From assembly GCA_026002875.1 (NCBI GenBank), contig BPGE01000001.1:868001-932000 (forward strand): a stretch of 64,000 nucleotides of DNA. Direction: 5' to 3'. This DNA comes from Bryobacteraceae bacterium. Lineage in GTDB: Bacteria; Acidobacteriota; Terriglobia; Bryobacterales; Bryobacteraceae. Shown here piece by piece: positions 22,596-52,907 of this stretch. Position numbers and translations under genes: made by a program. A model generated the notes under the pieces. It worked only from the letters and a program-made list of their open reading frames with translations, had not been told where the DNA came from and searched no databases. Within the stretch, counting starts at the first letter, position 1. Every line of letters starts with the position of its first letter.

Positions 22596-22685
<90 letters not shown>

Positions 22686-24323: not shown

Positions 24324-24837
24324 CAATGGACAAGTGCCCATCTTCGCCATGATCGACCACTGCTCGGCCTGCTGACTGGGGATCCACGTGGCCTGTCGCG
24401 GCACGCGCTTCGAGGCGCTCGAGCCGGTGCGCCAGGCCGTGCGCGAACAGTTCGGCGGCTTCAGTGAAGGCATCGCCCTGAGCGTCAAGCTGCGTCATGA
24501 CCACGGCTCGCAGTTCATGAGCGACGACTTTCAGCGCGAGATCCGCTTTCTCGGCCTGGAGTCTTCACCGGCCTTCGTGCGCGAACCCGAAGGCAACGGC
24601 TGCATCGAACGCTTCTTACGCACTCTCAAGGAGCAGCTTCTCTGGATGCGCCATTTCGAGACCGTGGAGGAGTTAGCCGAAGCGCTCGAAGAATTCCGCT
24701 AGCGCTACAACGACCGGTGGCTGGTCGAACGGCTCCGCTTCCAATCCCCGTGGGAGGCTCACCAAGCCCTGCTTGGCCTCGAGCCTGCCGCATGACGATA
24801 ATTCAAAAAACTGTCCAGGAAATCGGGGGCGGTACAC
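24324..24837 (+). pseudogene. 3' fragment of the IS3-like element (orfB remnant)
   Basis: About 510 bp nearly identical to the 3' part of the IS at 26288-27660, from IFAMIDHCSAC of orfB to the right end CGGGGGCGGTAC. It carries two in-frame stops (TGA after CSAC; TAG after EEFR), so it is inactive. Everything 5' of this point is missing. It lies just downstream of the integrase in the same orientation as the intact copy 1.9 kb away, so recombination between them could delete the trlF 3' half. Confidence 0.85.
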
Positions 24838-25129: not shown

Positions 25130-26287
25130 CTAACCCCCGGCCGACCGGGTGATCGGAGCCACTCCGCGAGTTGGCCGCTCCAGCGAGATGCGGCGATACC
25201 GACGCTCGAAGGCCTCACGACCGCCCTCCATGATGTTACAGATCGTGTCTCGCACTCCTTTCTCCTGCAAACTGCCCTGGGCCTCGATCTGGGTCTGTCC
25301 GCCCCGAGCCGCCAACGCCACAACGAGCTCGGCATCGCCGTTCACTACGATATTGGCGTTGTGTGTGATCACGATGACCTGCCGGCGCTGCTTGATGGTG
25401 CGCAGTTGCTGAACGATAAGGTCATAGATCAGATGGTTGTCCAGGTCGTCCTCGGGCTGGTCCAGAATGATCGGCTCCTCTCCGTAGGACAGGAGGAACG
25501 CCAAGAGCGCGGCGGTCTTCTGTCCCGGTGAACCTTCCTGGATCGATCGGAAGGAAGAACCATTCGCCCCGGTGCTGTACTCGACCTGCAGGCTGTCTTC
25601 GGGAAACCAAACGTCCAAGCGATCCAGGGCCTCAGGCGGGAGTTTGCCCATGTGCGTCGCAAACCGCTGATCCTTTAGGTCGAATGCATTGTGCGTTCCG
25701 CCGGCAATAGCCCGAAGGTTGGCCTTCAACGATTGAAGCCGTGTCTCAAATTCGGCCGCGTCCGGGTTCCCTTGATACAGCTTGCCCAGCATGCTGTCGC
25801 CGCCCTCGGGCGATCCAATGTCCTTCTCGAAGCCTCCAGTTTCTCTCTGCAATGTCTTCCGCAGTTCCTGCTCAACCGCCTTGCGGGCGCCGTACGGGAC
25901 GACGCGGATGCGGACGTATGGATTCTGCGCCAATGGATTCTGCGCCAAAACGGTCTCGATGAAAGCTTTCCTTCGGCTGGTCAGGTCCTGGCGAAGTTTC
26001 AGCAGCCGGTCCAGGGAGGCGCTGGCCTGCTTACGGATGCGGTCCAGCTCCTCGCGGCGCTTGCGAATCTCATCCAGCCGACTCTCAACCTCCTGGCGAC
26101 GCTTGACAAGGTCGCCGTACAACGACGGATCGCCGGCACCCTGGGCCTTGAGCTTCTCCTGAAGCTTACGATACGCGTCCGCCGTGGATTTCACAGCTTC
26201 GTTCCACGGTGACGAGTCTCGGTCCTCCGACCACTGCTGAGAAAGTCTCTCGACTTCATTGGCGAGCTCATTCAAGCGCTCTTGGAC
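25130..26287 (-). pseudogene. trlF: trlF-type gene, C-terminal half (split by IS)
   Basis: Continues the frame of the N-terminal half at 27661-29357. It supplies a coiled coil (RLDEIRKRREELDRIRKQA) and the second half of an SMC/ABC-type ATPase: signature SPGQKTAALLAFLL, Walker B PIILDQPEDDLD, and the switch VIVITHNANIVVN. On its own this piece lacks Walker A and cannot be a functional ATPase. The 14 bp AAGCGCTCTTGGAC at 26274-26287 is repeated at 27661-27674. Removing the IS and one repeat gives 2841 bp, exactly 947 codons. An ATG inside this half could in principle allow a partial product. Confidence 0.88.
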
Positions 26288-26340
26288 CTCCCCCGCCCCA
26301 CGATTTCCTTGGACACTGATTTGCGATAAGGAGAATCAGG

Positions 26341-26730
26341 ATGTCCAACACGAAACACTCGGATTCCGGGCCCGCGCAAGGAGCCCGGAGGGCGACTGAA
26401 GCGGGACCGGAATCCGGCCGCGGCGGCAAGGGCCGCTGGTCTGCCAAGCGCAAGATGAGCGTCGTTCTGGAGCTGCTCCGCGGCGCCGACCTGGAGACTA
26501 CGAGCCGCAAGTACGGTGTGACGGCGGCGACCCTGTCGGAGTGGCGGGAAGCTTTTCTGGCCTCTGGCGAAGAAGGCCTCAAGATCCGGCAGGAGGATCT
26601 GGTCGACGAGCAGGGCCGCCGGATGAAGTCGGTCATCGCCGAGCTCGCGATGGAGAACGAGCTGCTGAGGGAGCGCATCCGGCGGATGGAGGACAAGGAG
26701 CCTTTTCTGCGGTGGAGGTCGAAGCGATGA
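26341..26730 (+). CDS. Transposase OrfA, IS3-like
   Basis: 129 aa. HTH region KRKMSVVLELLRGADLETTS with KYGVTAATLSEWREAFLASG, then a Glu/Arg-rich helix (AELAMENELLRERIRRMEDK) resembling the leucine-zipper part of IS3-type OrfA. It ends in ATGA overlap with orfB, so OrfB is probably made by coupled reinitiation here rather than by a -1 frameshift. Confidence 0.88.
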   Translation: MSNTKHSDSGPAQGARRATEAGPESGRGGKGRWSAKRKMSVVLELLRGADLETTSRKYGVTAATLSEWREAFLASGEEGLKIRQEDLVDEQGRRMKSVIAELAMENELLRERIRRMEDKEPFLRWRSKR

Positions 26731-27620
26731 GCCGTGCCCGGTCGATCTCCACGGGACGCTGCTACGGGCGGGCTCGGGTGCTCAAGGCCTGGGGCCTGCC
26801 GCGGTCGACCTTCTACCAGCGGCGCCGCCTGCATGCCTCGCCTCGCCCGCCCGCCAGGCGCGGCCCGAAGACGCACTACACCGATGAGCAGCTCGCCGGG
26901 GAGATCCGGCGCACGATTCACGAGTCGCCTTTCCACGGCGAAGGCCACCGCAAGGTGTGGGCGCGGCTGCGGCTGGCCGGCGTGCGGACGTCGTTGCGGC
27001 GCGTGCTGCGGCTGATGCGCCAACACCAGCTGCTGGCGCCGCAGCGGCAGCCGCAGCCGGTGGAGCCGAAGCGCCACGAGGGAACGATCCTCGCCGGGCG
27101 GCCCAACCAGATGTGGGGCATCGACGCCACGGCGGGCTTCACTCTCCGGGACGGACAGGTGCCGATCTTCGCCATGATCGATCACTGCTCGGCCTGCTGC
27201 CTGGGCATTCACGTCGCCAGGCGCGGCACGCGGTTCGAGGCGCTCGAGCCGGTGCGCCAGGCCGTGCGCGAACAGTTTGGCGGCTTTGCCGAAGGCATTG
27301 CCTTCGGCGTGAAGCTGCGTCATGACCACGGCTCCCAGTTCATGAGCGACGACTTTCAGCGCGAGATCCGCTTTCTCGGCCTGGAGTCTTCACCGGCCTT
27401 CGTCCGCGAGCCGGAAGGCAACGGCTGCATCGAACGCTTCTTCCGCACCCTCAAGGAGCAGCTACTCTGGGTGCGGCACTTCGAAACCCTGGAAGAACTG
27501 GCCGAAGCGCTCGAAGAATTCCGCCAGCGCTACAACGAACAGTGGCTGGTCGAACGCCTCCACTTCCAATCCCCGCGGCAGGCTCACCAGGCCCTGCTTG
27601 CCCTCGAGGCTGCCGCATGA
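26727..27620 (+). CDS. Transposase OrfB (DDE integrase), IS3-like
   Basis: 297 aa. An HTH_21-type segment (HGEGHRKVWARLRLAGVRTS) precedes the rve integrase core: first Asp in MWGIDATAGFT, second Asp in VKLRHDHGSQFMSDDF, and Glu in EGNGCIERFFRTLKEQ. All three catalytic acids are present, so the element may be active. Confidence 0.88.
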   Translation: MSRARSISTGRCYGRARVLKAWGLPRSTFYQRRRLHASPRPPARRGPKTHYTDEQLAGEIRRTIHESPFHGEGHRKVWARLRLAGVRTSLRRVLRLMRQHQLLAPQRQPQPVEPKRHEGTILAGRPNQMWGIDATAGFTLRDGQVPIFAMIDHCSACCLGIHVARRGTRFEALEPVRQAVREQFGGFAEGIAFGVKLRHDHGSQFMSDDFQREIRFLGLESSPAFVREPEGNGCIERFFRTLKEQLLWVRHFETLEELAEALEEFRQRYNEQWLVERLHFQSPRQAHQALLALEAAA

Positions 27621-27660
27621 CGATAATTCAAAAAACTGTCCAAGAAATCGGGGGCGGTAC

Positions 27661-29357
27661 AAGCGCTCTTGGACCCGCGCAAAGCCGCTTACCAGGTTGG
27701 AAGACTTGGCGAGGAGGTCCTCGGCCGCAGTGTCACTCGCATCGGACAGTTCGCGGTCAAGCGGTGACGGCACGATCGATTGCGCCGTCTCCCGGATGCG
27801 ACCTGCGGCGCCTTGCCACTTCGATTCCCACTTCTTAACCGCGCCGGCTTCGCGTTGGCGGCGCTGATATTCTTTGAGGACCGCGGCGTGGTCCGTGCCT
27901 TCAAACGCTTCAAGCTTCCTCTTGACATCCTCCAGCTCGCCGAGCAGCCGCCCTTCGTCTCCCAGCTCAGCTTCCCGCCTGCGAGCCTCAGCCCGCAAGG
28001 ACAGATAGCGGTTTTCCTCTACTCGCCAATCTTCTTCCCACTTCGAACGGTCCACTGCGGATGCTTCGTCGACAATCCGCAAGAGCGCCAGTGGATCCTT
28101 CGCCAGTTCGAAGATCTGCTTCTGGCTGTAGATTCGGACTGGGAATCGCTGGGCGACGTCACCTTGCTCTTCCCGCCATCCACCCACACCGTCATCGACA
28201 TGGATGCTGCTCGACCTCGAGGCACTGGTCCAACGGACTTTGTAGCGCGTTCCATCTTTGCGGTAGATCACATCGAATTGAGAGTGCTGCGTCAGGAGGC
28301 CTTCATCGCCACGACTCTCATACAGCTTTCGGTACTTCTCGTAATCGGGCTTCAGAGCTTCCGGCAGTTCGCGTTCGCGATCCAGCGCTGTCCGGACGAA
28401 TTCAACGACCGTCGATTTCCCTGTCCCGCGTCCACCGATCACGGCGTTCAGCCAAGGATTCAGGGCGATGCTGAAGCTGCGACTCCTGTCCCCACTGGAT
28501 GACCGGCCCATATAGCGCGCTTCTGCGATCTCGACGTTTTCGATGACCAACGCCCCGTGATCATTGGGGTCATCCGACGTTTGATCGGAGCGTTTCACAG
28601 AGAGGCTGCCGTCGAGCAGCGCTAATCGAAGGCCTTCGATGCTCGGGTGACCCATCTTCACCCAAGTGAACCGGCTACCCGGATATTTCTGGCCGGCGTT
28701 GCCTGCCGGGTGGTGCGAGTCTGATCCCAGAACCTCGGTCCATGCAGCCTTGGTGTCGGTATAGAGGGCAGGCTTGGCCCACGCAGGATCGACCACTTCC
28801 ATAGCGACGATGTCAGCGCACTCGATCGCCTGCTTCAGAGTGGTGCCAGTGAACGTCGCCAGGAGGCCGCTGTTCTCGTCCACGTGGGCGGGAATCGCAA
28901 CTCCACCGACGCGGGTGATTTCACTGACTACCTCAGTGAACGACCTGGTCGTTACGTCGTCGCTCCGGCCGGTTGTTCCGGTGAAGCCAACAGCACCCAA
29001 GAGCGCCGTGATTTTCTCGCCAGCCACGCTTGGATCGAACAACGCCAGCACATGCACACCGCCGTTGACCGAGATCTCAACGCCAGGAAACAAGAACAAC
29101 TCTCTGAAGCCCTCTGGCCGTTCGTGGCCAAGCTCTTCCAGGGCATCCTTCAGGCCATCGATCCATGCCCCTGAATTGTGGTCCGTGACCGCCACGCAAT
29201 CGACGCCCGCCCGCATAAAGTCGAGCAGCCATTCGCGGGGCGTCCGAGAGCGGAGCTGAGCCTGATCGGGGCCCTTGCCATAGTCTTCCGAGGCGGGCGT
29301 GTGCGCGTGGAAATCGAACTTCCACCAACGTGCGCCATTCCAGTTCCAGGTGGCCAT
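27661..29357 (-). pseudogene. trlF: trlF-type gene, N-terminal half (split by IS)
   Basis: Starts at ATG 29357, 8 bp after the brxL stop, so it is the seventh gene of the BREX operon. Residues ~10-260 form a PHP phosphoesterase domain with intact metal ligands: HAH (17-19), TDH (59-60), Glu94 in PGVE, His158 in PAHVDE, and GSDSHH (211-216). Walker A of an SMC/ABC-like ATPase follows at 308-316 (GGRGTGKST). The frame is then interrupted after VQERL; beyond that the frame reads into the IS end (YRPRFLGQFFE). The family, annotated as TrlF-type AAA-like ATPase, is thought to pair a PHP nuclease-like activity with a DNA-end-sensing ATPase. Confidence 0.88.
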
Positions 29358-29365
29358 ACTTCCCC

Positions 29366-31420
29366 CTACTCCACCAGCGCTTTGAACACCGCATCTGCGG
29401 CGTCTTTGTAGAACTCAATGCTGATGCGGGTCCAGAGGTCGTCGGGCAGGTCGTTCAACTGCCGGCGGGCGGCGACGGGCATTAGCAGCGTCTGCGCCTG
29501 CTTGTCGATGGCGAGTTCGGCGATCTGGACCGCATTGGGGATCAGGTCGATCGAGCCGCCCAAGTTCAGCGCGCCGACGACGATCGTGCCGCCGCGGGTG
29601 TTCTTGCCGAGCAGGGCTCCGCACAAGGCCACCAGCACTGGCAGCCCCAGGCCGGCGCCGGAGCGGTCCGAATCGATGGCGCGCATCTGGATGGAGAATT
29701 CGTGCTCGCGCGGGTCGCGGTCGCCCACCAGTTCCTTCGCCCGCGCGTAGAGGTTCTGCTCGCCAATGCGAACACTCTCGCGGAACGCTGGCGGCACGGG
29801 CTGATTCAGAATCTTCACACCACTGCCCGGTCCCGAAGTGACCTCCAGGCGATACAGGCCCGCGCCCGTCTCGGGCGACCCCATGCCGACCGCCCACACC
29901 TGCCCGGGCGGCAGCGGATCGCTTTCAATCGCCTCATCGCTGTGCAGTTCCGGCGTCGAGACAAACTGCTCCACGCCATCCACGCCCAGCGTGTAGCTGA
30001 AGTGCGTGTTGCGGAACTCGCTCTTGAACACCCGCTTCTGCTGTTCCTTCACGCGCCGGCGCGACTCGAGCGCCAGCCGCGCCATCCACTCCAGGTCCTC
30101 GTCAGGAACCGGCATCGAAGGGTCGGGATACAACAGCTTCAGCAGACCGCTGACGGTCTTGTTTACCGCTTCAATGTCGCGGCCGCTCAGTGCGCCTCCC
30201 CAGTAGAGCCGTCCCTGAAGGACGTTCACTCGCGTTCCCGCGCGCAGCTTGTTCCAGCACTCGCTCAGGAAATCGCTCACCAGCCCGAAATGGTCGGTCA
30301 GGTGCTCGTCCACTTTGAGTTTCGGGAAGTCCCAGCCCGGCGCATACGCGTGCAGGCGGTCCATGAACGCCGTGTCGTTGCGCATCTCCGGCGGCAACGG
30401 GCTCAGCAGGTGGCCGAGGCGCTGTTGCTGCTGGACGTCCACATCCAGGTTCCCCAGCATGACGATGCTGCCATCGGCCCGGATGTTCTCCTTGCCCCGG
30501 CTGAACTGGCCCGAAGCCATGTAGCCCTTCATGATGTTGACGCCGTCTTTCTGGTCGAACGAGATCCCGGAGACTTCGTCGAAGCAGACCACGTCGTACT
30601 GGCAGACCAGGCCGCGCTGCCCCGTAGCCATGTTCACAAACATCTTCGCCACGGTCGCCTTGCCGCCTGAAATCAGGTGCGAGTAGGGCGAAATCTGCTG
30701 GTAGAGGTGGCTCTTGCCCGTTCCGCGCGGTCCCAGCTCCACAAAGTTGTAGTTGCGCTCGACAAACGGGACCATCCGCAGCAGCGCCACCCGCTTGGCG
30801 CGCTCATCGAGACTGGCCGGCTCCAGCCCCACGCTCCGGAGCAACAGGTCGATCCACTCCGCGCACGTGAACTTCGCCCGACCGCGCGCCAGCACCTCCA
30901 GCACGTCCGACTTTGACATCTGGATGGGTCGCAGGGCGTCGATGGCAAACGGCCGCCCGCCGTACTCCTGGGCCACCACGGCGTCATAGGAGAGCGTCGC
31001 CTCGGCGTAGAAGCCATCGGTGAGCATGCGCTCGTTCTCGCGGACCAGCTCATCGGCGATCCGCACGTCGTTCAAGGCCAGGCTCGGCAGTTCGGCAATG
31101 TAGCAGTCGCGCCGCGCGTCGAGCCTGGCGCGCACGATGTCGATCAGCTTCACCGAGCCCTGCTCTTTGGCGCGCGCCTTGAACAGCTCCTCTTCGCCGG
31201 TGCGCACCGTGCGGTCGCGGAGCTGTTTCTCCACAATCGCCAGGCCCTCCTGGATCTCCTGCTCATCGACGCTCGCACAATACCGCCCCAGCAGGAACTC
31301 GACCACGTAGGTCGGCACCGGATACTGCCGCGCGTACTTGCGCACCAGGTCTTTGCGCACCAGGTAGCCGTCAAAGGCCTCGGCGGCCTTCCGGTCCAGG
31401 CTATCCATTGTGATCGTCAT
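29366..31420 (-). CDS. brxL: BREX protein BrxL (AAA ATPase with Lon-like domain)
   Basis: 684 aa. Residues ~1-200 are the BrxL N-terminal region. The AAA part has Walker A GPRGTGKS (230-237) and Walker B VCFDEVSG (around 278-284), with IVMLGNLDV downstream. The C-terminal ~150 residues are Lon-like, with a serine in DSDRSGAGLGLP (Ser587). The usual Lon GGLKEK segment reads GGSIDLIP here (621-628), so the classical catalytic lysine is not evident. BrxL forms AAA+ ring assemblies on DNA in BREX-1. It overlaps the pglZ stop by 4 bp. Confidence 0.92.
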   Translation of the reverse strand: MTITMDSLDRKAAEAFDGYLVRKDLVRKYARQYPVPTYVVEFLLGRYCASVDEQEIQEGLAIVEKQLRDRTVRTGEEELFKARAKEQGSVKLIDIVRARLDARRDCYIAELPSLALNDVRIADELVRENERMLTDGFYAEATLSYDAVVAQEYGGRPFAIDALRPIQMSKSDVLEVLARGRAKFTCAEWIDLLLRSVGLEPASLDERAKRVALLRMVPFVERNYNFVELGPRGTGKSHLYQQISPYSHLISGGKATVAKMFVNMATGQRGLVCQYDVVCFDEVSGISFDQKDGVNIMKGYMASGQFSRGKENIRADGSIVMLGNLDVDVQQQQRLGHLLSPLPPEMRNDTAFMDRLHAYAPGWDFPKLKVDEHLTDHFGLVSDFLSECWNKLRAGTRVNVLQGRLYWGGALSGRDIEAVNKTVSGLLKLLYPDPSMPVPDEDLEWMARLALESRRRVKEQQKRVFKSEFRNTHFSYTLGVDGVEQFVSTPELHSDEAIESDPLPPGQVWAVGMGSPETGAGLYRLEVTSGPGSGVKILNQPVPPAFRESVRIGEQNLYARAKELVGDRDPREHEFSIQMRAIDSDRSGAGLGLPVLVALCGALLGKNTRGGTIVVGALNLGGSIDLIPNAVQIAELAIDKQAQTLLMPVAARRQLNDLPDDLWTRISIEFYKDAADAVFKALVE

Positions 31421-33738
31421 GACTTCTCTCCCACGCAGGTGGTTTGCGTTGTAATCACCTTGCCGTCGCGATCGAGCACCACGACCGAAGCCGCGGCCCC
31501 TTCATACTGGTCGTCGGGCACGGCCAGGCTCACTTCGCCGCCGGCGCCCACTTCTTTCACCGCCGCCGCGATGCTCGAACCTGCCTGCTTCCAATTCGTC
31601 CGCAGGTCGACCTTCACCAGAGGATCGTTGGTCTCAACGCGCACACGGCACCTCATCCCGCGCCATTCGACCGACTGGATCGACGCATACGTCGCGCCGA
31701 ACCCGCGCTCCACTTCGAGCACCGGCACCACGCACTCCTGCGGGCTGATGCCCCCATGTGCGTACGTTTCTCCGGCGCGGAAGCAGGCGATGCCAGGCGG
31801 CGAGGCGATCCGCACGGTTTCGTTCCAGTGCCAGGCGGCCACCGGCACGGCCAGATCCGGCTGGCCCTTCACCAGGGCGCACCGCGCCCACCTGGTTTCG
31901 GTGAGATAGGCCGGCAGTTCCACCTTGGGCAAACCGCCTGGCAGCAGCAGCCAGCCGTGATCCGTCACCACGCGAACCCGCCGCCAGCCGGCATCGAGCA
32001 GCGCCGCCACGCGCCCGGCCACCCGCTCCAGTTCTGCCGCCAGCTGATGGGCGAGATCGGCCTGAAGCGTGTGGCCCAGGCTGTCGATGGAACCGCACTC
32101 GGCCCAGCCGCCTCCGGCTGCACCCGTCGGGATCCGCGCCTCATCGGAATCCAGCACCTCGACGCCCGCCGCCTCCAGCCGCTCGCGCAGCAGCGGCGCG
32201 GTCAGGGGTTTCCACCCGGTCCTAGTCTCGACCAGGGGCGTGAAGTCCACGCCATAGCCGCCGCGAATCCCGTTGCCTACGGGGGCCGCCGCGGGCTTGG
32301 CTGTCGGCGTCACCGTGGGCAGCGCCGCCATGCGCCAGGTGAGGTTCACCTTCATGGATCGCTCTTCGAGCAGCGCCGCCAACTTCCCAGCCAAGTCGAA
32401 CCGCAGCCCATCGACGAAAAGCAGGCAGGTATCGGCCTCCGCCGGCGTTGTTCCCACAGCCTCGCGCGCGGCCTTGGCATCGCTGGCCGCGAGCGCCTGG
32501 AAGTGCCGCGCCGAGGCTTCGAGCCACGGCTCATACAGCGCCCGCACCACCTGCGCCATCAGCGCCGCTTCCGGGCCCGAGCGGAACAGCGCCAGCGCTT
32601 CCATCGCCGCGGCATCGCACCGCCAGCCGGATTCCGCATACGCCGCCGCAGCAGCCGCCAGCGTCCCGCCGCCCACTGGCGTTTGCGCCACGCGCGCCAG
32701 CCGAGCCAGCGGTTCCAGCGCTTTCGCCCAGGGGCTCCAACCGAGCCGCGCCCACACCCAGCCGCGGCGCTCGCCGTGCCGGGCTTCGAGTTCCAGCACC
32801 TTTACGCACGCGGCCGCATGAGCCAGGCGCGGGACGGCTTCGAGCGCCTGCCGGAGCTCGCCCTCCTCGCGCTCATTGATGCGCGGGTCGCGCGCCGGCT
32901 CAAGCGTCAACAGGCCCTGGCCCACGCCGGCGGGCTCGCGCAGCAGCTTCGCCACGCCCTGATACAGCTGCGGAGCCTCTACAAACCGTGTCCAGACGCG
33001 ATCCAGGCCCAGCTCGGCGCGCAACAGGAGGCCGGCGACCTCCGAGGGCGATGTCTTCTCCGGGTCCAGCCCGAACTCGCTCTTGACCACGGAGCGGAAA
33101 CTCTCCCAGCGCGCTCCTTTGGCTCCCGCTTCGAAGGTCTCCGGGTGATTCAGCCACAACAGGAGATCGCGGACCGGGTCCTGCACCGAGAGCTTGTCGA
33201 AGTCGTCCGCATCGAGACGCCGCCCTCTGAGCGGCGTCAGGTCGATTTCCGCGAGCAGCGGCAGCGCCCTCAGCATGGCTTCCTCGGTGCGGCGGTCGGC
33301 GGCGATGTCGAGGCCCAGGCCGTCGTCCGAAACCAGGAACGCCCGCACCGTCCAGTCGTGGCCGTTCGACTGATGCCAGACGCGCCCGCGGTATTGCAGC
33401 TCGACCAGCGGCTGCAACTGCGGCGGGCAGTCACCCGCGGCGCGCAACTCCTGCCGGCGGACATGCGGCAGGTACAGGACCGGCGTTTCGCCCGACGGCG
33501 GCGCTTCCGGCAGCGTGCGGTCCACAATGCACTTCAGCCAGATCGCTGGCCCGGTCTTTGTGTCGGGGTTGTACTTGCCGAACGTATAGACCCAGGGGAA
33601 GACGGCGCGCAGCGCGGGCAACAGGGGGAGCCACTGCCCGTCGGCGTCGGTCCAGAGGATGGCCACCGGCGTGACGTGCCCTTCGGGCGCAAGCATCGCC
33701 GCGCGGAAGGAAGCCATCAGGCGGTCGATCAGTTTCAT
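31417..33738 (-). CDS. pglZ: BREX phosphatase-like protein PglZ
   Basis: 773 aa, close to the shorter (type B) BREX-1 PglZ form. Visible alkaline-phosphatase-superfamily elements are TCLLFVDGLRFDLAGKLAALL (cut here: LFVDGLRFD), VVTDHGWLLLPGGLPK, and YAHGGISPQECVVPVLEVER near the C-terminus. PglZ is a core BREX component required for both phage restriction and methylation. Overlaps pglX by 4 bp upstream and brxL by 4 bp downstream. A 783-aa open frame on the opposite strand is a GC-bias shadow. Confidence 0.92.
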   Translation of the reverse strand: MKLIDRLMASFRAAMLAPEGHVTPVAILWTDADGQWLPLLPALRAVFPWVYTFGKYNPDTKTGPAIWLKCIVDRTLPEAPPSGETPVLYLPHVRRQELRAAGDCPPQLQPLVELQYRGRVWHQSNGHDWTVRAFLVSDDGLGLDIAADRRTEEAMLRALPLLAEIDLTPLRGRRLDADDFDKLSVQDPVRDLLLWLNHPETFEAGAKGARWESFRSVVKSEFGLDPEKTSPSEVAGLLLRAELGLDRVWTRFVEAPQLYQGVAKLLREPAGVGQGLLTLEPARDPRINEREEGELRQALEAVPRLAHAAACVKVLELEARHGERRGWVWARLGWSPWAKALEPLARLARVAQTPVGGGTLAAAAAAYAESGWRCDAAAMEALALFRSGPEAALMAQVVRALYEPWLEASARHFQALAASDAKAAREAVGTTPAEADTCLLFVDGLRFDLAGKLAALLEERSMKVNLTWRMAALPTVTPTAKPAAAPVGNGIRGGYGVDFTPLVETRTGWKPLTAPLLRERLEAAGVEVLDSDEARIPTGAAGGGWAECGSIDSLGHTLQADLAHQLAAELERVAGRVAALLDAGWRRVRVVTDHGWLLLPGGLPKVELPAYLTETRWARCALVKGQPDLAVPVAAWHWNETVRIASPPGIACFRAGETYAHGGISPQECVVPVLEVERGFGATYASIQSVEWRGMRCRVRVETNDPLVKVDLRTNWKQAGSSIAAAVKEVGAGGEVSLAVPDDQYEGAAASVVVLDRDGKVITTQTTCVGEKS

Positions 33739-36700
33739 CGTTTCCCCTCTGCCTGCTTGCGCTCCCGCGCCTGCTTCCTGGTTTTGAGCGAGTAGTGCAG
33801 GTCGTTCCAGCGGGCGCCGTCGAAGGTGTCGTTGCCGAGAAAATCTTCGGTGCGCTCGTCCCAGTTACAGAACCAGGGGTAGTCTTCCTTGGCGCGGTGC
33901 GGTTCCTTGCCGCGGTCTTTGCCGTAATTGATCTTGGGCGTCACGCGCAGCACGCAGGCGCCCTTCCTGGGTTTGGTGATGGGCGCGAGCGTCGTCTGGA
34001 GCCACGGGCGGATGTTCAGCCGCACGCCGTCATTGATGTCCGGTTCCCAGCCGATGGGTTGCTGGTGGAGCGGTTTCCAGCGAATGAAGAGATCGTAGGG
34101 TTTTTCGCCCTCGAGGATCTTTTCGAGTTCGGCTTTGAGATGCAGCGCGACGGTGAGGCGGGCGTCCGCGCCTTCTTTGCCGGCTTTCACTTCATCCTGC
34201 TGGCGCTCGATCCAGCGGCCCAGGTACGTGTAGATCAGCTTTTCGAGCGTCTTGCGCCCTTCGCCGTTGGGCCCGGCCAGCTTGTGATAGTTGACCAGGG
34301 CATGGAAGCCGTCCTTGCGCCCGTCCCAGATGTGCCAGACGAAGGGGCGCTGATGGAAGATCTTGCAGTGCTCTTCGAAGAACCCGTCGCGGAGCCAGTC
34401 TTCGAGCGAATCCCAGTCGCCGAGGAGTTCCTTGAGCTTCGCGGCGGACCATTCTTCGCCGTAGGCATCGGCGAGCAGGGCGCGGAGGCGGTCGGCAGCC
34501 GAGGCTTCGCCGCCGATCGAGGCGAGCGGCACGATGCCGTCCGCATCGGCGTGTTTTTCCAGGCCATCGGGGCCGAGCGCGGGGCAGTCTGGGAAACTCG
34601 AGCCGGTCTGCCGCGGCCAGCGGTAGCCGACCAGCCGGGCGACGGCGACCTGAAGCGGGTGATCGGAGCCTTTCGGGTGGCCGTTGAACAGCCACTGCGT
34701 GGGGTCGTCGGAGTGCGGCTTGGGCAGACCGTTGGGGTATTTCTCGGCGGCGACGCGTTGCCAGTGGGCGAGGTCAAACCGAACTTTCGCAAACGACGAC
34801 TCGGTAACGCTAAGCGCCTGGTCAACCTCGCGAACAAGATCGGGAAATTCATTGGAATGAATGCACGCTGCGATCGGAAGCAGGTTCCCATCGTTGTTTG
34901 GAATGACTGCTGCCAACGTGCCATCGAATCGATTCCCGTAAAAGAAGCTTCGGTAAAGTTGCCGGGTGACAGCCACTGCAACTCCACGCCTCCCGACCAC
35001 CTGCAAGCCTTTTTGCGCTGTTCCGATCTGGGCCAATTCACCATTGCCCTTCTGCCAGAAAAGCAGGCCGCAGAAGTCACTAATCCCGTTACGACTTGGA
35101 GCCATTTGGAAGTACTCCCAGTCGTCGCTCATCACTGGCTGTTCCCAGAAAAATTCAACGAACCGTGGCATGTCTGTTGTACTCACGCCCTGGTACACGG
35201 TTGCGTACTGCCCCAGTCTTGTTTGGCCTTTTCCCGAGCTTCCAAAGGCTATCGAGCTATCTGGATTCTCTCTTTGGTCCGACTGGCAGCACACAACGGT
35301 GGGGAAGTCGTATAGCCCCTCCGCCTTCTCCTCGGGCGTGCTTGCCTCTCCCACATCCCACCCCGCGAAGGTGTGGTCGGGCGCGGGGGCGCGGCGGGTC
35401 AGGCCCAGCAGCGCCACATTGACCACCTCGCCGCTGATGGTCTCGAAGGCGCGCGGACCCAGGCGCGCCACGAAGTCCCACTGCTCGCCCTTCAGCAACC
35501 GCTCGCGCAGCCTCCTGTAGCTCGTCAGGAACAGCCAGTTCTGCGGCGTCACCAGCGCCACCGAGCCACCGTCGCGTGCGAAGCGTAGGCAGCGGTCGAC
35601 AAAGCAGGTGGCCAGGTCCGCCTTGGCGTCGGGGTGAAACTCGGCGCAGTAATCGGCCAAGACCTTGTCCTGTTTTCCTCGCCCCAGGTAAGGCACATTG
35701 GTCGCCACCAGCGTGAAGCGGCTGGCCAGAATCCGGAACGCCGCCAGCACCCCTTGAGCGGCGATGGCGAGTTCGCGGGTCTCCTCGGATTGTTCTCGCG
35801 CCAGCGCCTCCTCAATCAGCGGCAGCACGTGCTCGGCGCCCGCGGAGTACACCGACTTTTCGAGCCGCAGCGGGTCAATCAGGCTGCCCAAGGTGGGCGC
35901 GTCCTTAAACAGGAAATAGAGCCGCCGCATCTCCTCACGCGCCAGGCCATCTTCACCGGCCAGCTTCACCCAATCCGCCTCGGAGGCATGGATGCCCAGC
36001 CCCGAGGAGGCGAAGTTCAGCTCGGGCAGAGGGAAATGCCCGCCGGCCATGCGCCACGCGGCCAGCGCCAGGTTGAATGCGGCGATCTGCGCGCAGCGGG
36101 CATCGATCTCGAGGCCATAGAGATTCTCTTTGAGCACGGCGGCGAGCGCGTCTTTGAGCGAAAGGCCCTCTTCCTCCATCCGCATGCGCGCGAGAATCGG
36201 CAGCGCAAAGACCAGGAAGTGCCCGCTGCCCATGCAGGGGTCAAGCACGCGCAGGTCGCGCGCCGCACGGGGCCAGCCGTCAAAGGAGCCGGCCGCCGGC
36301 GAGCCGTCTTCGTTCAAGCGCAGGTAGGTCCAGGTATAGCCCGCGAGCGTCGGGTCTTTGCCCTCGGCGCGGCGCCTGGCCGTCCACCAGGCGCCGAGCG
36401 TGTTTTCGAGCAGGAAGAGGACCATGTAGTCCTCGGTGAAAAGCTGCGTCACCGCCGGCAGTTCGTCGGCGCCGATTTTGACTTCGGCCTTGTTGACGCG
36501 GTCCTTTTCATCCCGCTGCCAGAACTGGTAGACCCAGCCGAGGCTGTCGTCGGCCAGGAAGATCTCGCGGGGCAACGAGGCGAGCTTCTCTTCGAGCTGC
36601 TGCCGTGTCTCTGGCGGAAGCTGGACCTTCAGCACCGGGTCATCTGGGCGGAAGACGGCGAGCAGCATCCGCTGGGCGAGCGAGGCGGCCAGATCCATCC

Positions 36701-37085
36701 AGTCGCGCCCCTGCTCGCGGGCGAGCTCTCGGACTTCCTCGAGCGACATCGCCACGCCGTGCTCGGCGTCGAGCAGCAGGTCGTTCTCGGCGAGGAACCG
36801 GGCAAACAGCATCCGGTGCCAGTGCTCGTAGGCGGCAGCCTGGACGAGGTGGTCGATTTCTTGCGTTTCGCGCCGGGAGTCGCGCGAGTCGCCCACCTGC
36901 CGGCCATGGGCGCGAAGCTGGTTGCGCAGTTCGCGCTCTTCGGCGCTCATGTGCGGCCAGGGCTCGTGGTGATGGACGGCATACTGGTCCGCGAGGACTT
37001 TGCGCGCGCCCTCTTCAGCGATACGGCGGGCTTCGGCGACGGTCTTCTCTAACAGGCGGCGGTGTTCGCGGCTGAGCGTGCTCAT
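33735..37085 (-). CDS. pglX: BREX adenine-specific DNA methyltransferase PglX (BrxX)
   Basis: 1116 aa. Long N-terminal region, then the methyltransferase with motif I LDPCMGSGHF (281-290) and an acidic motif II region (NLYGLEIDARCAQ). Motif IV reads TNVPYLGRGKQ (462-472) instead of the canonical (D/N)PP(Y/F). The C-terminal half would hold target recognition regions. PglX modifies adenine in the BREX recognition sequence of host DNA and is needed for restriction. It follows brxC by 15 bp. A stretch around 34750-35330 has lower GC than its flanks, within the likely recognition part (WEYFQMAPSRNGISDF, SSFAKVRFDLAHWQ), consistent with domain exchange. Confidence 0.92.
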   Translation of the reverse strand: MSTLSREHRRLLEKTVAEARRIAEEGARKVLADQYAVHHHEPWPHMSAEERELRNQLRAHGRQVGDSRDSRRETQEIDHLVQAAAYEHWHRMLFARFLAENDLLLDAEHGVAMSLEEVRELAREQGRDWMDLAASLAQRMLLAVFRPDDPVLKVQLPPETRQQLEEKLASLPREIFLADDSLGWVYQFWQRDEKDRVNKAEVKIGADELPAVTQLFTEDYMVLFLLENTLGAWWTARRRAEGKDPTLAGYTWTYLRLNEDGSPAAGSFDGWPRAARDLRVLDPCMGSGHFLVFALPILARMRMEEEGLSLKDALAAVLKENLYGLEIDARCAQIAAFNLALAAWRMAGGHFPLPELNFASSGLGIHASEADWVKLAGEDGLAREEMRRLYFLFKDAPTLGSLIDPLRLEKSVYSAGAEHVLPLIEEALAREQSEETRELAIAAQGVLAAFRILASRFTLVATNVPYLGRGKQDKVLADYCAEFHPDAKADLATCFVDRCLRFARDGGSVALVTPQNWLFLTSYRRLRERLLKGEQWDFVARLGPRAFETISGEVVNVALLGLTRRAPAPDHTFAGWDVGEASTPEEKAEGLYDFPTVVCCQSDQRENPDSSIAFGSSGKGQTRLGQYATVYQGVSTTDMPRFVEFFWEQPVMSDDWEYFQMAPSRNGISDFCGLLFWQKGNGELAQIGTAQKGLQVVGRRGVAVAVTRQLYRSFFYGNRFDGTLAAVIPNNDGNLLPIAACIHSNEFPDLVREVDQALSVTESSFAKVRFDLAHWQRVAAEKYPNGLPKPHSDDPTQWLFNGHPKGSDHPLQVAVARLVGYRWPRQTGSSFPDCPALGPDGLEKHADADGIVPLASIGGEASAADRLRALLADAYGEEWSAAKLKELLGDWDSLEDWLRDGFFEEHCKIFHQRPFVWHIWDGRKDGFHALVNYHKLAGPNGEGRKTLEKLIYTYLGRWIERQQDEVKAGKEGADARLTVALHLKAELEKILEGEKPYDLFIRWKPLHQQPIGWEPDINDGVRLNIRPWLQTTLAPITKPRKGACVLRVTPKINYGKDRGKEPHRAKEDYPWFCNWDERTEDFLGNDTFDGARWNDLHYSLKTRKQARERKQAEGKR

Positions 37086-37100
37086 CGTCGGCAGATCTCC

Positions 37101-40100: not shown

Positions 40101-40574
40101 CAGGATGCTCAGCACGCTGAGCCGGACGTTTTCCGTGGTGCCGGCGGGCAGCGTGCCAGCGGCCGCGAGCAGCCCTCCGGAGCGCTTGCCGGCGACGTCG
40201 AGCTCGCGCAGCAGGTCGCGGACCTCTTCCGGGAGTTCGGGCACAAGGCTGCGCGCCGTGGCGCCGTCCGGGAACTGGGTGTCCACCCAGAGGTGCGCGA
40301 GCATCTTGAGCAGGTGCGACTTGCCGCTGCCGAAGAAGCCGCTGACCCAGGCGGCCTTCTGGTTGGTCTGGCTGCGGTTGGCGAGATACGAGGAAAGGAT
40401 CTTGATGATGCCTTCGGCATACTGGCCTTCGCAAACGAACGTGGAAAGTTCGCCGCGCAGCTCGGCCAGCACGCGGTCGTCGGCCAGTTCGTTCGTGATG
40501 CGGGCCTGGCCGTTGTTGACCAGCCCTTCCCTGGCCGGGTCGCGCAGCAGGGTGTCTCGAATCAGAGTCGGCAT
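37101..40574 (-). CDS. brxC: BREX P-loop ATPase BrxC
   Basis: 1157 aa, a typical BrxC length. The diagnostic Walker A GFFGSGKSH is at 79-87, with the Walker B-like LLILDETQQY later. Segments such as MPTLIRDTLLRDPAREGLVN at the start are typical for BREX-1 BrxC. The long C-terminal half is helical (LEAKSLAARRTEAEAIPARV). It probably acts as the central ATPase of the BREX complex. The start ATG shares one base with the brxB stop. Confidence 0.93.
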   Translation of the reverse strand: MPTLIRDTLLRDPAREGLVNNGQARITNELADDRVLAELRGELSTFVCEGQYAEGIIKILSSYLANRSQTNQKAAWVSGFFGSGKSHLLKMLAHLWVDTQFPDGATARSLVPELPEEVRDLLRELDVAGKRSGGLLAAAGTLPAGTTENVRLSVLSILLRACGLPTQYPQAQFHLWLEERGLLAEVKGAVEAAGKTWAQELNNLYVSPLIAKALRAADPDFATSDAAAKELLKSQFPLRTTDLTTEEFLAMFKRVLSRAGKDGQLPCTLLILDETQQYIGDSETRSVLITEIAEAVCKQLDSQVMLVAAGQSALTGVKLLHKLLDRFTIRIQLSDTDVEAVTRKVLLRKRATAVNTIAELLDTHAGEISRQLQGTGIGERQEDKAVIVEDYPLLPVRRRFWEHCFRQVDTAGTQSQLRSQLRIIHDCLARLSGEPLGRLIPGDDLYEALAPEMVTTGALPREINERIVALGRTGKPEDRLRQRICGLVFLIGQLPREAGADTGVRATKEHIADLMVDDLAADNGKLRAEVARVLDQLAEEGVLMRVGDEFRIQTEEGRNWDDEFRKREARLKNDTAFFDEHRDRYLADDVAKTVAKVKLLHGAAKVPRSLVTHRTAEPPVSDGESIPLWLRDGFTISEKEVLNAARAAGVSSPVLFVFIPRKSRDELLNAIATEQAAEQTLNAKGVPSTPEGQLARQSMESRYQLAKRQRELLVAEIVSAAKVFQGGGNELLQLTLEEKLRTGAEASLARLFPRFKEADFSSSAWEAALKRARDGADQPFSPLGYQGPIEQHAVSKQVLAAIGSGKTGAEVRKELERSPYGWPRDAVDAALIALHRSQHVTATLNGVAVAPGQLDQNKISKSEFRVETITLSVQDRLALAGLYKELDITAKPGEVDGKAPEFFTALKKLAEEAGGDPPAPARPGLTDIEDIEARLGNDRLAALRARVDDLKSRIAAWKKTRELITKRLPVWQTLERLAAHAVALPEAKSRLDECDAIRAGRLLLAEPDPVAPVLKGLADLLRHALNAAHSAHETAYQAAMAKLAADEVWNRITPADQSRLLKEVGLEAPVKPELGTDAALVAALEAKSLAARRTEAEAIPARVEKALQQAAQLLEPKVQFVAVDRALLKTEADVDSWLAGQRRKLVEALKDGPVQVQ

Positions 40575-41134
40575 CAGTATCCTCCAGAAGAGTGCACGGT
40601 GATGGGCACCGCCAGGTAGTTCCAGCCATCGCGGGCGTCGAGCAGGCGGTAGTTGTTTTGGTCGTAGACGCCCGGAAAGAACACGACCAGGCGGCCGCGA
40701 ATGTAGGGTTCAAGCAGCTTGAGAACGCGCGAGACGCGGGTGAAGCCAAACAGCGCGCCGACGCCGAAGACAGCGGTCACCGATGTGGCAGTAGCCTCCG
40801 GCTTCTCGAGGACGGCGCGGATGCGGGCGGCGACGGATTCCGCGAACTCAGACTCGAGCTTGAGTTGCAGGTCGTCGGGCGATTCAAAGTAGGCGTCGCG
40901 GTATTCGTCGGCGGCCATCCAGCGCGCGAAAGAGTCGGCGACATCGATCTCCAGCCATTCATGCCCGGTTTCGCGCGTCGCCAGTTCGAAGAGCTGCTTG
41001 CGGGCGAGCAGGGCGCGCTCGAGTTCTTTGTCGTAAACCACCAGGATGACGCGCTGCGCGCCGGCCACGGTCTGTTGCCAGGGGAGGCCGATGTGCTGGC
41101 GATACTTTTCGGCGAGGTGTTCGATGCGTCCCAT
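40574..41134 (-). CDS. brxB: BREX protein BrxB (DUF1788)
   Basis: 186 aa, normal for BrxB. DUF1788 features are visible: VILVVYDKELERALLARKQL near the front, the conserved GVGALFGFTRVSRVLKLLEP, and the C-terminal GRLVVFFPGVYDQNNYRLLDARDGWNYLAVPI. BrxB is required in BREX-1, probably as a scaffold with BrxC and PglZ. It lies 3 bp after brxA and touches brxC, so translation is coupled. Confidence 0.92.
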   Translation of the reverse strand: MGRIEHLAEKYRQHIGLPWQQTVAGAQRVILVVYDKELERALLARKQLFELATRETGHEWLEIDVADSFARWMAADEYRDAYFESPDDLQLKLESEFAESVAARIRAVLEKPEATATSVTAVFGVGALFGFTRVSRVLKLLEPYIRGRLVVFFPGVYDQNNYRLLDARDGWNYLAVPITVHSSGGY

Positions 41135-41137
41135 GGA

Positions 41138-41938
41138 TTACCTCGCTTGCGGGGCGGCCGCGTAGGCCGGGTCGAGACGGTCGAGGTTGAGGTCGATCAC
41201 GTCGCCGGCCATGCGGAGGTCGATCAGGCCAAGCCGCTTGGCCGCGGTGGCCAGCTCGAGGGCTGCCGAGGCGGAACAGTCCAGCACTTTGACCCAGCCG
41301 GAGGAAAGACTCTCTTCGACGGCCAGCCCGGCGGCGTGGGCCAGATACAAAGCGAACGCCACGGCGGCGGGGGTGGGCCGGACCTGGCGGCGGAACTTGA
41401 ACGTGCGGCCTTCGAGGTGGCCAGATTGCGACCAGGAACTGGCGGCGTTGCGGACGACTTTGTTCAAGGTGGATTCGTTCAGGCGGTCTTCGACAGCTTT
41501 GGCGAGCGCCTCGCGCATGGCCGTGCGCTGGAACTCGGCGCCTTCGGGAAGGCTCAGGACGACATCGGCTGTGGCGAGCAGAAGAGGATCGCGGGCGAGG
41601 CTGGTTAACAGTGCCAGCAGAGGGCGGCCTTGCTCGTCCAGGTCCCAGAGACGGCGCAGAATCCGGAAGACCGGCACGGCAGGGTCCAGGGCGTAGAGCT
41701 CGCGGAGCCGCTGCAAGGTGAGCCGGCGCGTGGAGACAGTCTGCTTGCCGAGGCAGTTTTCTTCGACGATGGCGGCGACGTACTCGTCCGGCTTGCCGTT
41801 CAGGGGAACGGCAGCCAGAACGGCTGTCAGTTCCTCGAGCATGATGGTTCGGCTGGTATGAGTACCAATGTGGCCGAAGCGGAAGCCGGCCGCGCTGGCG
41901 TCGGCTCGATCAGTAGTGGGAGGGAAGAAGGTCAGCAT
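41138..41938 (-). CDS. brxA: BREX protein BrxA (DUF1819-like)
   Basis: 266 aa. The THTSRTIMLEELTAVL segment and CLGKQTVSTRRLTLQRLRELYALD match the DUF1819/BrxA pattern, and position as first gene of a brxA-B-C-X-Z-L series supports the call. BrxA is a small DNA-binding protein in BREX-1. The ATG at 41938 has no clear ribosome site; the stop of a 51-codon upstream ORF overlaps it, which could provide translational coupling. Confidence 0.88.
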   Translation of the reverse strand: MLTFFPPTTDRADASAAGFRFGHIGTHTSRTIMLEELTAVLAAVPLNGKPDEYVAAIVEENCLGKQTVSTRRLTLQRLRELYALDPAVPVFRILRRLWDLDEQGRPLLALLTSLARDPLLLATADVVLSLPEGAEFQRTAMREALAKAVEDRLNESTLNKVVRNAASSWSQSGHLEGRTFKFRRQVRPTPAAVAFALYLAHAAGLAVEESLSSGWVKVLDCSASAALELATAAKRLGLIDLRMAGDVIDLNLDRLDPAYAAAPQAR

Positions 41939-42141: not shown

Positions 42142-42170
42142 ATGATAATTCAAAGCCGACAGCCTGTCAA
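42142..42170 (-). promoter_or_regulatory. Sigma-70-type promoter of the BREX operon
   Basis: On the minus strand, TTGACA (42170-42165) is followed after exactly 17 bp by TATCAT (42147-42142). This is the best promoter match in the window. It directs transcription to brxA, whose start is about 200 nt downstream. GCCGGC dyads lie 18 bp upstream of the -35 and 14 bp downstream of the -10. Confidence 0.75.
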
Positions 42171-44103: not shown

Positions 44104-44179
44104 GGCGCCACTTGCCTCCTTTCATCATCCGCGGCCTGTTGAGCCGGGCGAACACTGAGCCGCTGGTTCGGTCGTTTAG

Positions 44180-45499: not shown

Positions 45500-45718
45500 T
45501 TAGTGTCAGTGGCAGGCTCCGGGCGGAGTTCGCTGGCTGTTTGGCCCCGTGCACGAAGCTGCTCCTGGCCGGACCTGCCTTAACAGTTTCCCGACGCCAT
45601 CTCAGACCCATCCCCGCAGCTCTCCCTCCTGGGCTCCTGAAGGGCTGTCCGGCTGGACTCGCTCATCGCCAGCATGGCCGGCTCCTAAATCCTCTGCATC
45701 CGCTACTGGTTGATTGAG

Positions 45719-52754: not shown

Positions 52755-52907
52755 TTAGTTACTTCTAGGAACTACGGGCAGTGTCGTAAACGGCCCAGCA
52801 AGATTAAAGCGGAGCCCCAACGCGACTATCCGCTTGCCCGGTTCAGCTCGGATCTCCAGTAGCCCCGATCTGGCAGCAAGCCCGGAAGGGGCACCATCTG
52901 TTCCTAG
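52755..52907 (-). pseudogene. C-terminal 50 codons of an exported protein split by IS5 copy B
   Basis: Reads ALGTDGAPSGLAARSGLLEI and ends FTTLPVVPRSN before TAA at 52755. This continues the frame of the gene at 54228-55335: with the IS and one CTAG removed the whole is 1257 bp, exactly 419 codons. The segment corresponds to the end of the repeated C-terminal domain also found in the protein at 55671-59918 (there ending GEAFTSIPVHHH). Confidence 0.85.

What the first reader, a model, noticed from the sequence alone, without database searches (positions are those of the whole stretch)
25130..41938. Complete BREX type 1 operon with a TrlF-type PHP/ATPase as seventh gene
Six BREX-1 core genes in canonical order (brxA-B-C-pglX-pglZ-brxL) are joined by overlaps or gaps up to 15 bp, and the trlF-type gene follows brxL by 8 bp. 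That spacing indicates one transcript and suggests the PHP-SMC/ABC protein was part of the defence unit rather than a passenger.
Basis: partly seen in the sequence, partly recalled or inferred. Interest (0 to 1): 0.75.

Follow-up and report, generated by a model that had tools for sequence, protein, structure and literature searches.

The report
BREX operon with a disrupted nuclease
An acidobacterium carries a six-gene phage-defence operon (BREX) whose seventh gene, a predicted nuclease that bears the mark of past selection, has been cut in two by a mobile element; related genomes show that this kind of nuclease has joined BREX operons more than once.

Summary
In detail: six BREX-1 core genes, gaps -4 to +15 bp, and a TrlF-type PHP/ABC gene 8 bp after brxL. 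This trlF is split by a 1371-bp IS3-like element with 16-bp direct repeats, yet its pieces keep 114 of 115 residues invariant in 24 relatives. A second locus, L117, has brxL-9 bp-trlF; trlF dN/dS between the two is 0.14. In 396 genomes of the phylum, BrxL and TrlF co-occur in 8 (1.7 expected), in 6 of them in one BREX locus, usually between pglX and pglZ and followed by a Schlafen/HATPase gene. The window's trlF descends from TrlFs outside BREX (one BREX clade rejected, p 4e-12) and lacks the Schlafen gene. In a Pseudomonadota sample, 0 of 16 BrxL genomes show linkage, the chosen centre left out. Best reading: a recurrent, independently recruited add-on nuclease of one BREX-1 subtype, inactivated here. 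PHP, TrlF and Ppl do not occur in the main text of a 2026 BREX effector catalogue.

The parts
41138..41938 (-). brxA (266 aa)
   Evidence: PADLOC BrxA 321 bits
40574..41134 (-). brxB (186 aa)
   Evidence: PADLOC BrxB 253 bits; Pfam PF08747
37101..40574 (-). brxC (1157 aa), Walker A GFFGSGKS at residue 79
   Evidence: NF033441 781.5 bits, cut-off 400
33735..37085 (-). pglX/brxX adenine methyltransferase (1116 aa), motif IV NVPY
   Evidence: PADLOC PglX 1442 bits; NF033452 333 of 500 bits
31417..33738 (-). pglZ type B (773 aa)
   Evidence: NF033450 847 bits, cut-off 400
29366..31420 (-). brxL (684 aa)
   Evidence: PADLOC BrxL 977 bits; TIGR02688 448.5, cut-off 329.3; TIGR02653 629.3, cut-off 628.25
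27660..29357 (-). trlF-type gene, N part: PHP domain, Walker A, first coiled coil; starts 8 bp after brxL. The mechanical ORF runs on to 27462 inside the insert.
   Evidence: NF045780 331.8 bits over profile 1-574; 56 of 57 invariant residues kept
25130..26288 (-). trlF-type gene, C part: second coiled coil, ABC signature, Walker B (longest ORF 25130-26275, TTG start)
   Evidence: NF045780 299.9 bits over profile 586-943; 58 of 58 invariant residues kept
26289..27659 (+). IS3-like element with OrfA-like (26341-26730) and OrfB-like (26541-27620) frames, inserted in trlF
   Evidence: Pfam HTH_Tnp_1, HTH_21, rve; 93% identical to a second copy at 59918-61291; L117 lacks it
26273..26288 (.). 16-bp target-site duplication, copy 1
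   Evidence: the two aligned blocks of L117 overlap by 17 bp there
27660..27675 (.). 16-bp target-site duplication, copy 2
24328..24837 (+). truncated further copy of the same IS, 292 bases beyond the trlF stop codon
   Evidence: 91% identity to the IS in trlF
42142..42170 (-). promoter-like site about 0.2 kb before the brxA start, 11 of 12 consensus matches
   Evidence: 2 promoter-like sites found in the region, 1.5 expected by chance: weak evidence
22596..22685 (+). tRNA-Ser(cga), likely integration site of the island (inferred)
   Evidence: ARAGORN; followed at 22780 by a tyrosine integrase
22780..24162 (+). tyrosine integrase (460 aa)
   Evidence: Pfam Phage_integrase 102 bits

Best explanation
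This is a complete BREX-1 (PglZ type B) operon in an acidobacterium, probably of the order Bryobacterales, to which a TrlF-family PHP/ABC gene had been added as last gene. Shown by sequence: gene order and spacing, the same brxL-trlF junction in a second genome, low dN/dS of trlF, recurrent embedding of TrlF in related BREX loci, and disruption of this copy by an IS. Inferred: one transcript, and the mechanism. BREX marks self DNA with PglX and blocks unmarked phage DNA with the rest of the core; TrlF is a single-chain nuclease with a Rad50/SMC-like coiled-coil ATPase that gates a PHP nuclease domain, as described for E. coli Ppl, and acts as a back-up effector on phages that outlast or inhibit BREX. 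Co-transcription keeps guard and main system together. TrlF was recruited into BREX at least twice: between pglX and pglZ, mostly with a Schlafen/HATPase partner, and separately after brxL, without the partner (window and L117). In this strain the IS separates Walker A from signature and Walker B, so TrlF is most likely inactive while the BREX core genes look intact.
For: Order and spacing. L117: brxL 95% identical over 428 residues, TrlF 78-79%, gap 9 bp. dN/dS brxL 0.047, trlF N part 0.144, C part 0.145. TrlF and BrxL together in 8 of 396 genomes, 1.7 expected, p 8e-5; without the window 7 of 395, p 4e-4. In 6 of those 8 they lie in one BREX locus. Order pglX-trlF-SLFN-pglZ-brxL in L173, L174, L187, L190, and with further genes in L176, L180, L188, L189; again in L260. 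In L262, of the window's family, TrlF is full length (945 aa) in that slot while the Schlafen gene is a remnant. Model of the intact sister L118: mean pLDDT 86.8; Foldseek lists SMC, Rad50, RecN and Wadjet heads, and Endonuclease Q and a metal-dependent phosphoesterase. PHP and ABC residues kept. Ppl biochemistry from a review (PMC12904381 section 5).
Against: No transcription or phage data. 70 of 80 near TrlF relatives show no BREX gene in the stretch held (many stretches are short, and only BREX genes similar to the window's would be seen). No linkage in 16 BrxL genomes of a Pseudomonadota sample. In L174, L180, L188 and L189 the frame-to-frame gap from pglX to trlF is 0.4 to 4 kb, so not every case is tightly joined. 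Only two loci show brxL-trlF, and the L117 copy has an in-frame stop at codon 32 (the record's title gives coverage 1.6, so a sequencing error is possible). dS of trlF (0.83-0.93) exceeds that of brxL (0.59), so the two genes may not share all their history. Nothing shows that TrlF responds to failure of BREX. Ppl-like activity is by analogy: the Ppl cut-off is not met (561 of 1000 bits for L118).
Confidence: 0.5

Rival explanations
1. TrlF is an autonomous defence gene that merely uses the BREX operon as a place to be expressed and spread (defence-island hitch-hiking). It protects in parallel and has no functional tie to BREX.
For: 70 of 80 close TrlF loci show no BREX gene; the window's TrlF lies among such TrlFs; the Schlafen gene follows TrlF in 60 of 79 evaluable loci, in and out of BREX; E. 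coli Ppl is a single-gene system (PMC12904381); no linkage in the Pseudomonadota sample.
Against: In several loci the insertion is inside the gene string with overlaps or a few bp (L187, L190, L173; 8-9 bp in the window and L117). One BREX subtype in the phylum is favoured (5 of 11 loci). BREX-linked TrlFs group on the tree (6 label changes against a shuffled mean of 13.3), though near-copies add to that.
Confidence: 0.35
2. The present locus is a BREX operon with a dead end: trlF is a remnant with no remaining role, and only the six core genes matter.
For: IS insertion splits the ATPase core; no Schlafen partner was found in the whole genome (without a positive control); four congeners have no TrlF match.
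Against: This is true of today's allele but does not explain the shared junction or the dN/dS of 0.14. 114 of 115 invariant residues remain, so the break is recent.
Confidence: 0.12
3. The two trlF pieces are still made and fold together as a two-chain Rad50-like nuclease, the IS having only split the coiled coil.
For: By position the break falls in the coiled coil between the two ATPase halves (L118 model helix 538-580); the C-part ORF has a purine-rich stretch from the IS end upstream of its TTG (read by eye); in a few relatives TrlF also lies in two ORFs (L120, L166, L182, L184, L191).
Against: The N-part ORF gains foreign residues from the IS; the IS genes run antisense; no expression evidence. 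The two-ORF relatives may be frameshifts or draft errors. Alignment A3 holds single chains, but they were chosen as such.
Confidence: 0.03

Closest known systems
BREX type 1 (PglZ type B)
   Same: Six core genes in canonical order; PglZ-B, BrxC and BrxL pass NCBIfam cut-offs.
   Different: PglX scores 333 of 500 bits on the NCBIfam BREX-1 model and has NVPY in place of NPPY; trlF is appended.
TrlF family AAA-like ATPase (NCBIfam NF045780)
   Same: The two pieces cover nearly the whole profile (1-574 and 586-943 of 944); the sister L118 scores 601.9 bits, cut-off 350.
   Different: This copy is split; 70 of 80 near relatives show no BREX gene.
Ppl (E. coli single-gene PHP/NTPase, ssDNA 3'-5' exonuclease)
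   Same: PHP + NTPase layout; L118 aligns to the Ppl model end to end.
   Different: Below the Ppl cut-off (561 of 1000 bits for L118); sits in BREX or beside a Schlafen gene, whereas Ppl is described as a single-gene system.
BREX loci with embedded auxiliary effectors (PARIS, GmrSD, Schlafen and others; PMC12839542)
   Same: A nuclease-type accessory gene inside or directly after the core operon; the Schlafen + minimal histidine kinase gene described there resembles the SLFN partner seen here.
   Different: PHP, TrlF and Ppl do not occur in that paper's main text (word search; section 35 read whole; supplements not read).
PrrC inside a type I restriction locus
   Same: Works-like comparison only: an accessory effector embedded in a modification-based defence locus that is activated when the main system is inhibited (PMC12707154 passages).
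   Different: PrrC is a tRNA anticodon nuclease; TrlF is a PHP/ABC protein; no trigger is known for TrlF in BREX.

Membership tests
BREX type 1 | brxA-brxB-brxC-pglX-pglZ-brxL in this order on one strand | tested here: met
BREX type 1 | PglZ of a type-1 class | tested here: met
   NF033450 PglZ type B, 847 bits, cut-off 400
BREX type 1 | PglX over the NCBIfam BREX-1 cut-off | tested here: not met
   NF033452 333 bits, cut-off 500; PADLOC PglX model 1442 bits. I therefore speak of a subtype of BREX-1 by its other genes.
BREX type 1 | Site-specific adenine methylation and phage protection | not testable with these tools
   needs methylome and plaque assays
TrlF family (NF045780) | Whole protein over the curated cut-off | tested here: inconclusive
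   pieces 331.8 and 299.9 bits, cut-off 350; the intact sister L118 601.9
TrlF family (NF045780) | PHP metal-site residues and ABC motifs (identity of the motifs recalled) | tested here: met
   19 of 19 chosen positions identical; 114 of 115 invariant columns
Ppl (NF042955) | Curated cut-off of 1000 bits | tested here: not met
   window pieces 352.8 and 224.5; L118 561.2, L053 491.7, L187 550.2
Ppl (NF042955) | ssDNA 3'-5' exonuclease released by NTP depletion | not testable with these tools
   stated for E. coli Ppl in a review
BREX-embedded auxiliary effector | Encoded within or directly adjacent to the core locus, recurrent across taxa | tested here: met
   6 of 25 BrxL-positive genomes of the phylum sample, 5 genera; L173, L187, L188 outside it
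BREX-embedded auxiliary effector | Same linkage in a sample of a second phylum | tested here: not met
   0 of 16 BrxL genomes, chosen centre excluded; single cases exist (L187, L188)

The most novel reading that the evidence does not exclude
TrlF is a regular, exchangeable seventh component of an acidobacterial BREX-1 subtype: a single-chain, Mre11-Rad50-like PHP nuclease that guards BREX. It has been recruited independently at two places of the operon (between pglX and pglZ; after brxL), and twice stands without its Schlafen partner (window/L117 and L262), which points to TrlF itself, not the pair, as the part that BREX uses.
Probability: 0.35. Interest if true: 0.65.

Novelty: new variant of a known kind. 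Interest (0 to 1): 0.5.

Why it matters
How BREX restricts DNA is still unsettled, and embedded effectors are proposed as its back-up layer (PMC12839542 section 35). PHP/ABC proteins do not occur in the main text of that catalogue. If they are regular partners, BREX operons of Acidobacteriota offer natural with/without sets (for example L260 with TrlF + Schlafen, L262 with TrlF and a Schlafen remnant, L047 with neither) to test what the add-on does.

Tried and rejected
Considered that the 353-aa minus-strand ORF at 26268-27329 is an extra operon gene: it lies antisense to the transposase frame and hits no family; rejected. Considered that the IS removed the Schlafen partner in the window: not the simplest account, because L117, which lacks this IS, shows no Schlafen gene in the 605 bases held behind trlF either; a truncated IS copy does lie 292 bases beyond the trlF stop. 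Considered one single entry of TrlF into BREX: rejected by the AU test for the 11 close BREX-linked rows. Looked for a second attachment site of the tRNA-Ser island: only the tRNA itself matches without mismatch in the whole genome. PDB sequence search with the L118 TrlF found nothing at E 0.001. The search of two genomes for the Schlafen partner has no positive control. I ran no control with another defence gene for the linkage counts. Of 38 papers holding 'TrlF' 15 were listed, none by title on phage defence. Paper searches behind the statement on print. Papers: PMC12839542 - outline, passages and section 35 whole; PMC12904381 - passages and section 5; PMC12707154 - passages; all others search listings only. 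Supplements were not available.

Thresholds and rows dropped: in the phylum sample BrxL was counted at E 0.001 and TrlF at E 1e-25; in the Pseudomonadota sample both at 1e-40. In the 5 of 11, partial BrxL loci of this type at contig edges (L058, L060) and the window itself were left out. For the tree, TrlFs with under 250 profile positions covered were left out (L046/L093, L097, L109, L113; so G203's TrlF is in no C-part tree), then seven rows that duplicate other rows (L129, L136, L174, two of L176, L180, L190; 107 to 100), then 12 distant rows without BREX (100 to 88). In one search seven distant rows more (L096, L106, L111, L112, two of L090, L091_5311) were left out, leaving 81. Four of the ten BREX-linked loci among the 80 (L174, L176, L180, L190) are contigs already met in the phylum sample.
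Full report
Observation. The six core genes of a type 1 BREX system lie on the minus strand from 41938 down to 29366 in canonical order. Gaps are +3, -1, +15, -4 and -4 bp, and a TrlF-type gene starts 8 bp after the brxL stop. The six core genes have no internal stop; BrxC and BrxL keep Walker A motifs. NCBIfam cut-offs are passed by BrxC, PglZ (type B) and BrxL (TIGR02688 448.5 of 329.3 bits; TIGR02653 629.3 of 628.25); PglX falls short of the BREX-1 model (333 of 500 bits), so I speak of a subtype. In all 12 PglX proteins aligned from such loci, methyltransferase motif IV reads NVPY or NVPF, whereas four PglX proteins of other BREX loci read NPPY or NPPF.

State of trlF. The gene is interrupted. 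Its N part matches positions 1-574 and its C part 586-943 of the 944-position TrlF model. Between them lies a 1371-bp element on the plus strand with IS3-like transposase frames, flanked by 16-bp direct repeats at 26273-26288 and 27660-27675. The same element is present at 59918-61291 (93% identity) and, truncated, at 24328-24837 (91%). Walker A is in the N part, the ABC signature and Walker B are in the C part, so the ATPase core is divided. Apart from the insertion the gene looks fresh: of 115 columns invariant among 24 relatives, 114 are kept (56 of 57 in the N part, 58 of 58 in the C part), and the ten PHP-type positions that I chose are all present.

The junction has a history. A short contig of another acidobacterial MAG (L117; Acidobacteria bacterium isolate YF4.bin40) holds the end of brxL, 9 bp, and a trlF gene without the insert. 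BrxL is 95% identical over the 428 residues compared and TrlF 78-79%. Between window and L117 dN/dS is 0.047 for brxL, 0.144 for the N part and 0.145 for the C part of trlF (Nei-Gojobori counts, one pair of sequences). So trlF was under purifying selection over most of the divergence of these two copies, which stand at the same place. Caveats: the L117 copy has an in-frame stop at codon 32 (the record's title gives a coverage of 1.6, so a sequencing error cannot be excluded), and dS is higher for trlF (0.83-0.93) than for brxL (0.59), so a partly separate history is possible.

Is TrlF enriched with BREX? In 396 genomes of the window's phylum, BrxL is found in 25 (E up to 0.001) and TrlF in 27 (E up to 1e-25); both occur in 8, with 1.7 expected (Fisher p 8e-5; without the window 7 of 395, p 4e-4). 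In 6 of these 8 (G000, G005, G024, G184, G203, G392; five genera) the two genes lie in one BREX locus; in G065 and G349 they do not. Of 11 other loci with a full-length BrxL of the window's subtype, 5 contain TrlF. In the window's own class, 8 of 399 genomes hold a close TrlF (E up to 1e-40) and 3 of the 8 have it in a BREX locus (the window, G865 and G848). By contrast, a sample of 398 genomes of the phylum of L188 (named a Pseudomonadales MAG, so Pseudomonadota) has BrxL in 17 and TrlF in 39 (E up to 1e-40), both in 3; in two of the three they lie on different contigs, and the third is the sampling centre, which I chose because it is linked. That leaves 0 of 16; co-occurrence there is not above chance (3 against 1.7, p 0.23). 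The link is thus real in this phylum, with single cases elsewhere (L187, L188). 5 of 24 against 0 of 16 gives p 0.07, so the difference between phyla is only suggestive. I ran no control with another defence gene.

Where TrlF sits. Except in the window and L117, TrlF in the type-1 loci that I looked at lies between pglX and pglZ, and in most it is followed by a gene of about 420 aa with a Schlafen AlbA_2 and a HATPase_c_4 domain. G005 holds two TrlFs in a more distant BREX locus in which my queries found no pglZ. In L187, L190 and L173 the genes overlap or lie a few bp apart, but in L174, L180, L188 and L189 the gap from pglX to trlF is 0.4 to 4 kb. The TrlF-Schlafen pair is common without BREX: 60 of 79 evaluable TrlF loci out of 80 found in named genomes have the Schlafen gene directly downstream, while 10 of 80 show BREX genes, four of them on contigs already met in the phylum sample. 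Many stretches are short and only BREX genes similar to the window's were sought, so 10 is a lower bound. No Schlafen gene or remnant was found behind trlF in the window or in the part of L117 held, nor in either genome (no positive control). L262, from the window's own family, has the most similar BREX core of the three loci compared that hold all six genes (L262, L260, L047; brxC 77%, pglX 71%, pglZ 70%, brxL 86%), yet its TrlF is in the pglX-pglZ slot, is only 40-46% identical to the window's, and its Schlafen gene has shrunk to a remnant. So similar BREX cores carry different TrlFs at different places, and TrlF twice stands without its partner.

Descent. In a tree of 88 C parts the window and L117 are sisters (support 100), next to L118 (96), inside a set of 28 rows of which 26 are not BREX-linked (95); the slot TrlFs lie in a different part of the tree, mixed with a few unlinked ones. 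Holding all 11 close BREX-linked rows together is rejected (81 rows, p 4e-12). A tree of 77 N parts again joins window and L117 with support 100, but has no further starred set around them. These are quick searches with SH-aLRT support only.

What TrlF probably does. The intact sister L118 was modelled from 24 relatives (mean pLDDT 86.8, pTM 0.71). The 50 Foldseek matches shown are mostly SMC, Rad50, RecN, cohesin, condensin and Wadjet heads; among them are also a metal-dependent phosphoesterase (3o0f), Endonuclease Q, AriA-AriB and a Lamassu complex. TM-scores are low (query-normalised 0.17-0.29) and the aligned ranges are not shown; that the phosphoesterase and Endonuclease Q match the PHP domain is my inference. 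The layout recalls a Mre11-Rad50 machine in one chain. E. coli Ppl is described as a ssDNA 3'-5' exonuclease with PHP and NTPase domains that is held back by NTPs and released when phage depletes the nucleotide pool and makes 3'-OH ends (PMC12904381, section 5). The window's TrlF is not a Ppl equivalog by NCBIfam's cut-off, so this activity is an analogy. As a back-up effector in the BREX locus it would resemble PARIS or PrrC in role (PMC12707154 passages; PMC12839542 section 35). That role is inferred and untested.

Known or new. A 2026 survey lists HNH, HKD, PD-(D/E)XK, TOPRIM/OLD, HEPN, PIN and Schlafen effectors with BREX. The words PHP, TrlF and Ppl do not occur in its main text. I could not read its supplements. 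My paper searches for BREX with TrlF, with a PHP domain, and for PHP-SMC returned none; BREX with Ppl and PHP returned two, a review that treats BREX and Ppl separately in the passages I saw and an unrelated study of poplar bacteria seen as a listing only. I therefore call the TrlF-BREX link a new variant of a known kind, namely embedded BREX effectors.

Setting. The operon lies beside a tRNA-Ser and a tyrosine integrase. Three of four congeners keep the oxidoreductase-tRNA-Ser neighbourhood, and none of the four has a match to the L118 TrlF.

Noticed in passing
window 33735-37085 (pglX): Methyltransferase motif IV reads NVPY; NVPY/NVPF in 12 of 12 PglX aligned from this BREX subtype, NPPY/NPPF in 4 of 4 of other BREX loci. 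Possibly a subtype marker.
   Followed up: partly
window 26273-27675: The IS3-like element has a 16-bp target duplication, longer than I recall for the IS3 family.
   Followed up: no
window 44177-45503 and 52905-54231: Two copies, 99.9% identical, of a DUF772/DDE_Tnp_1 transposase element upstream of the BREX operon; further transposases (Mutator at 50238-51164, rve at 51429-52520) make 44-61 kb rich in such elements.
   Followed up: partly
L091 / L176 (G184): Two different TrlF genes, each followed by a Schlafen-type gene, in tandem between pglX and pglZ of one BREX locus.
   Followed up: no
L120, L166, L182, L184, L191: TrlF lies in two ORFs in these five of the 80 loci; frameshifts, draft errors or true splits were not told apart. 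L182 is also a decayed BREX locus with brxC and pglX fragments.
   Followed up: no
L092 9639-14368: Between brxC and pglX of the G024 BREX locus lie an AAA_15/AAA_21 ATPase gene and a SIR2-like gene, a further accessory slot.
   Followed up: no
window 55671-59981: Large ORF of 1436 aa in a stretch of lower GC with one Ig-like (N_BRCA1_IG) match in Pfam and no PADLOC hit.
   Followed up: no
window 18321-19523: AAA_14/DUF4143 ATPase gene that matches PADLOC candidate PDC-S01 models, on the other side of the tRNA-Ser from the BREX operon.
   Followed up: no
L262 8219-8632: Schlafen partner reduced to a remnant while the TrlF gene before it is full length.
   Followed up: partly
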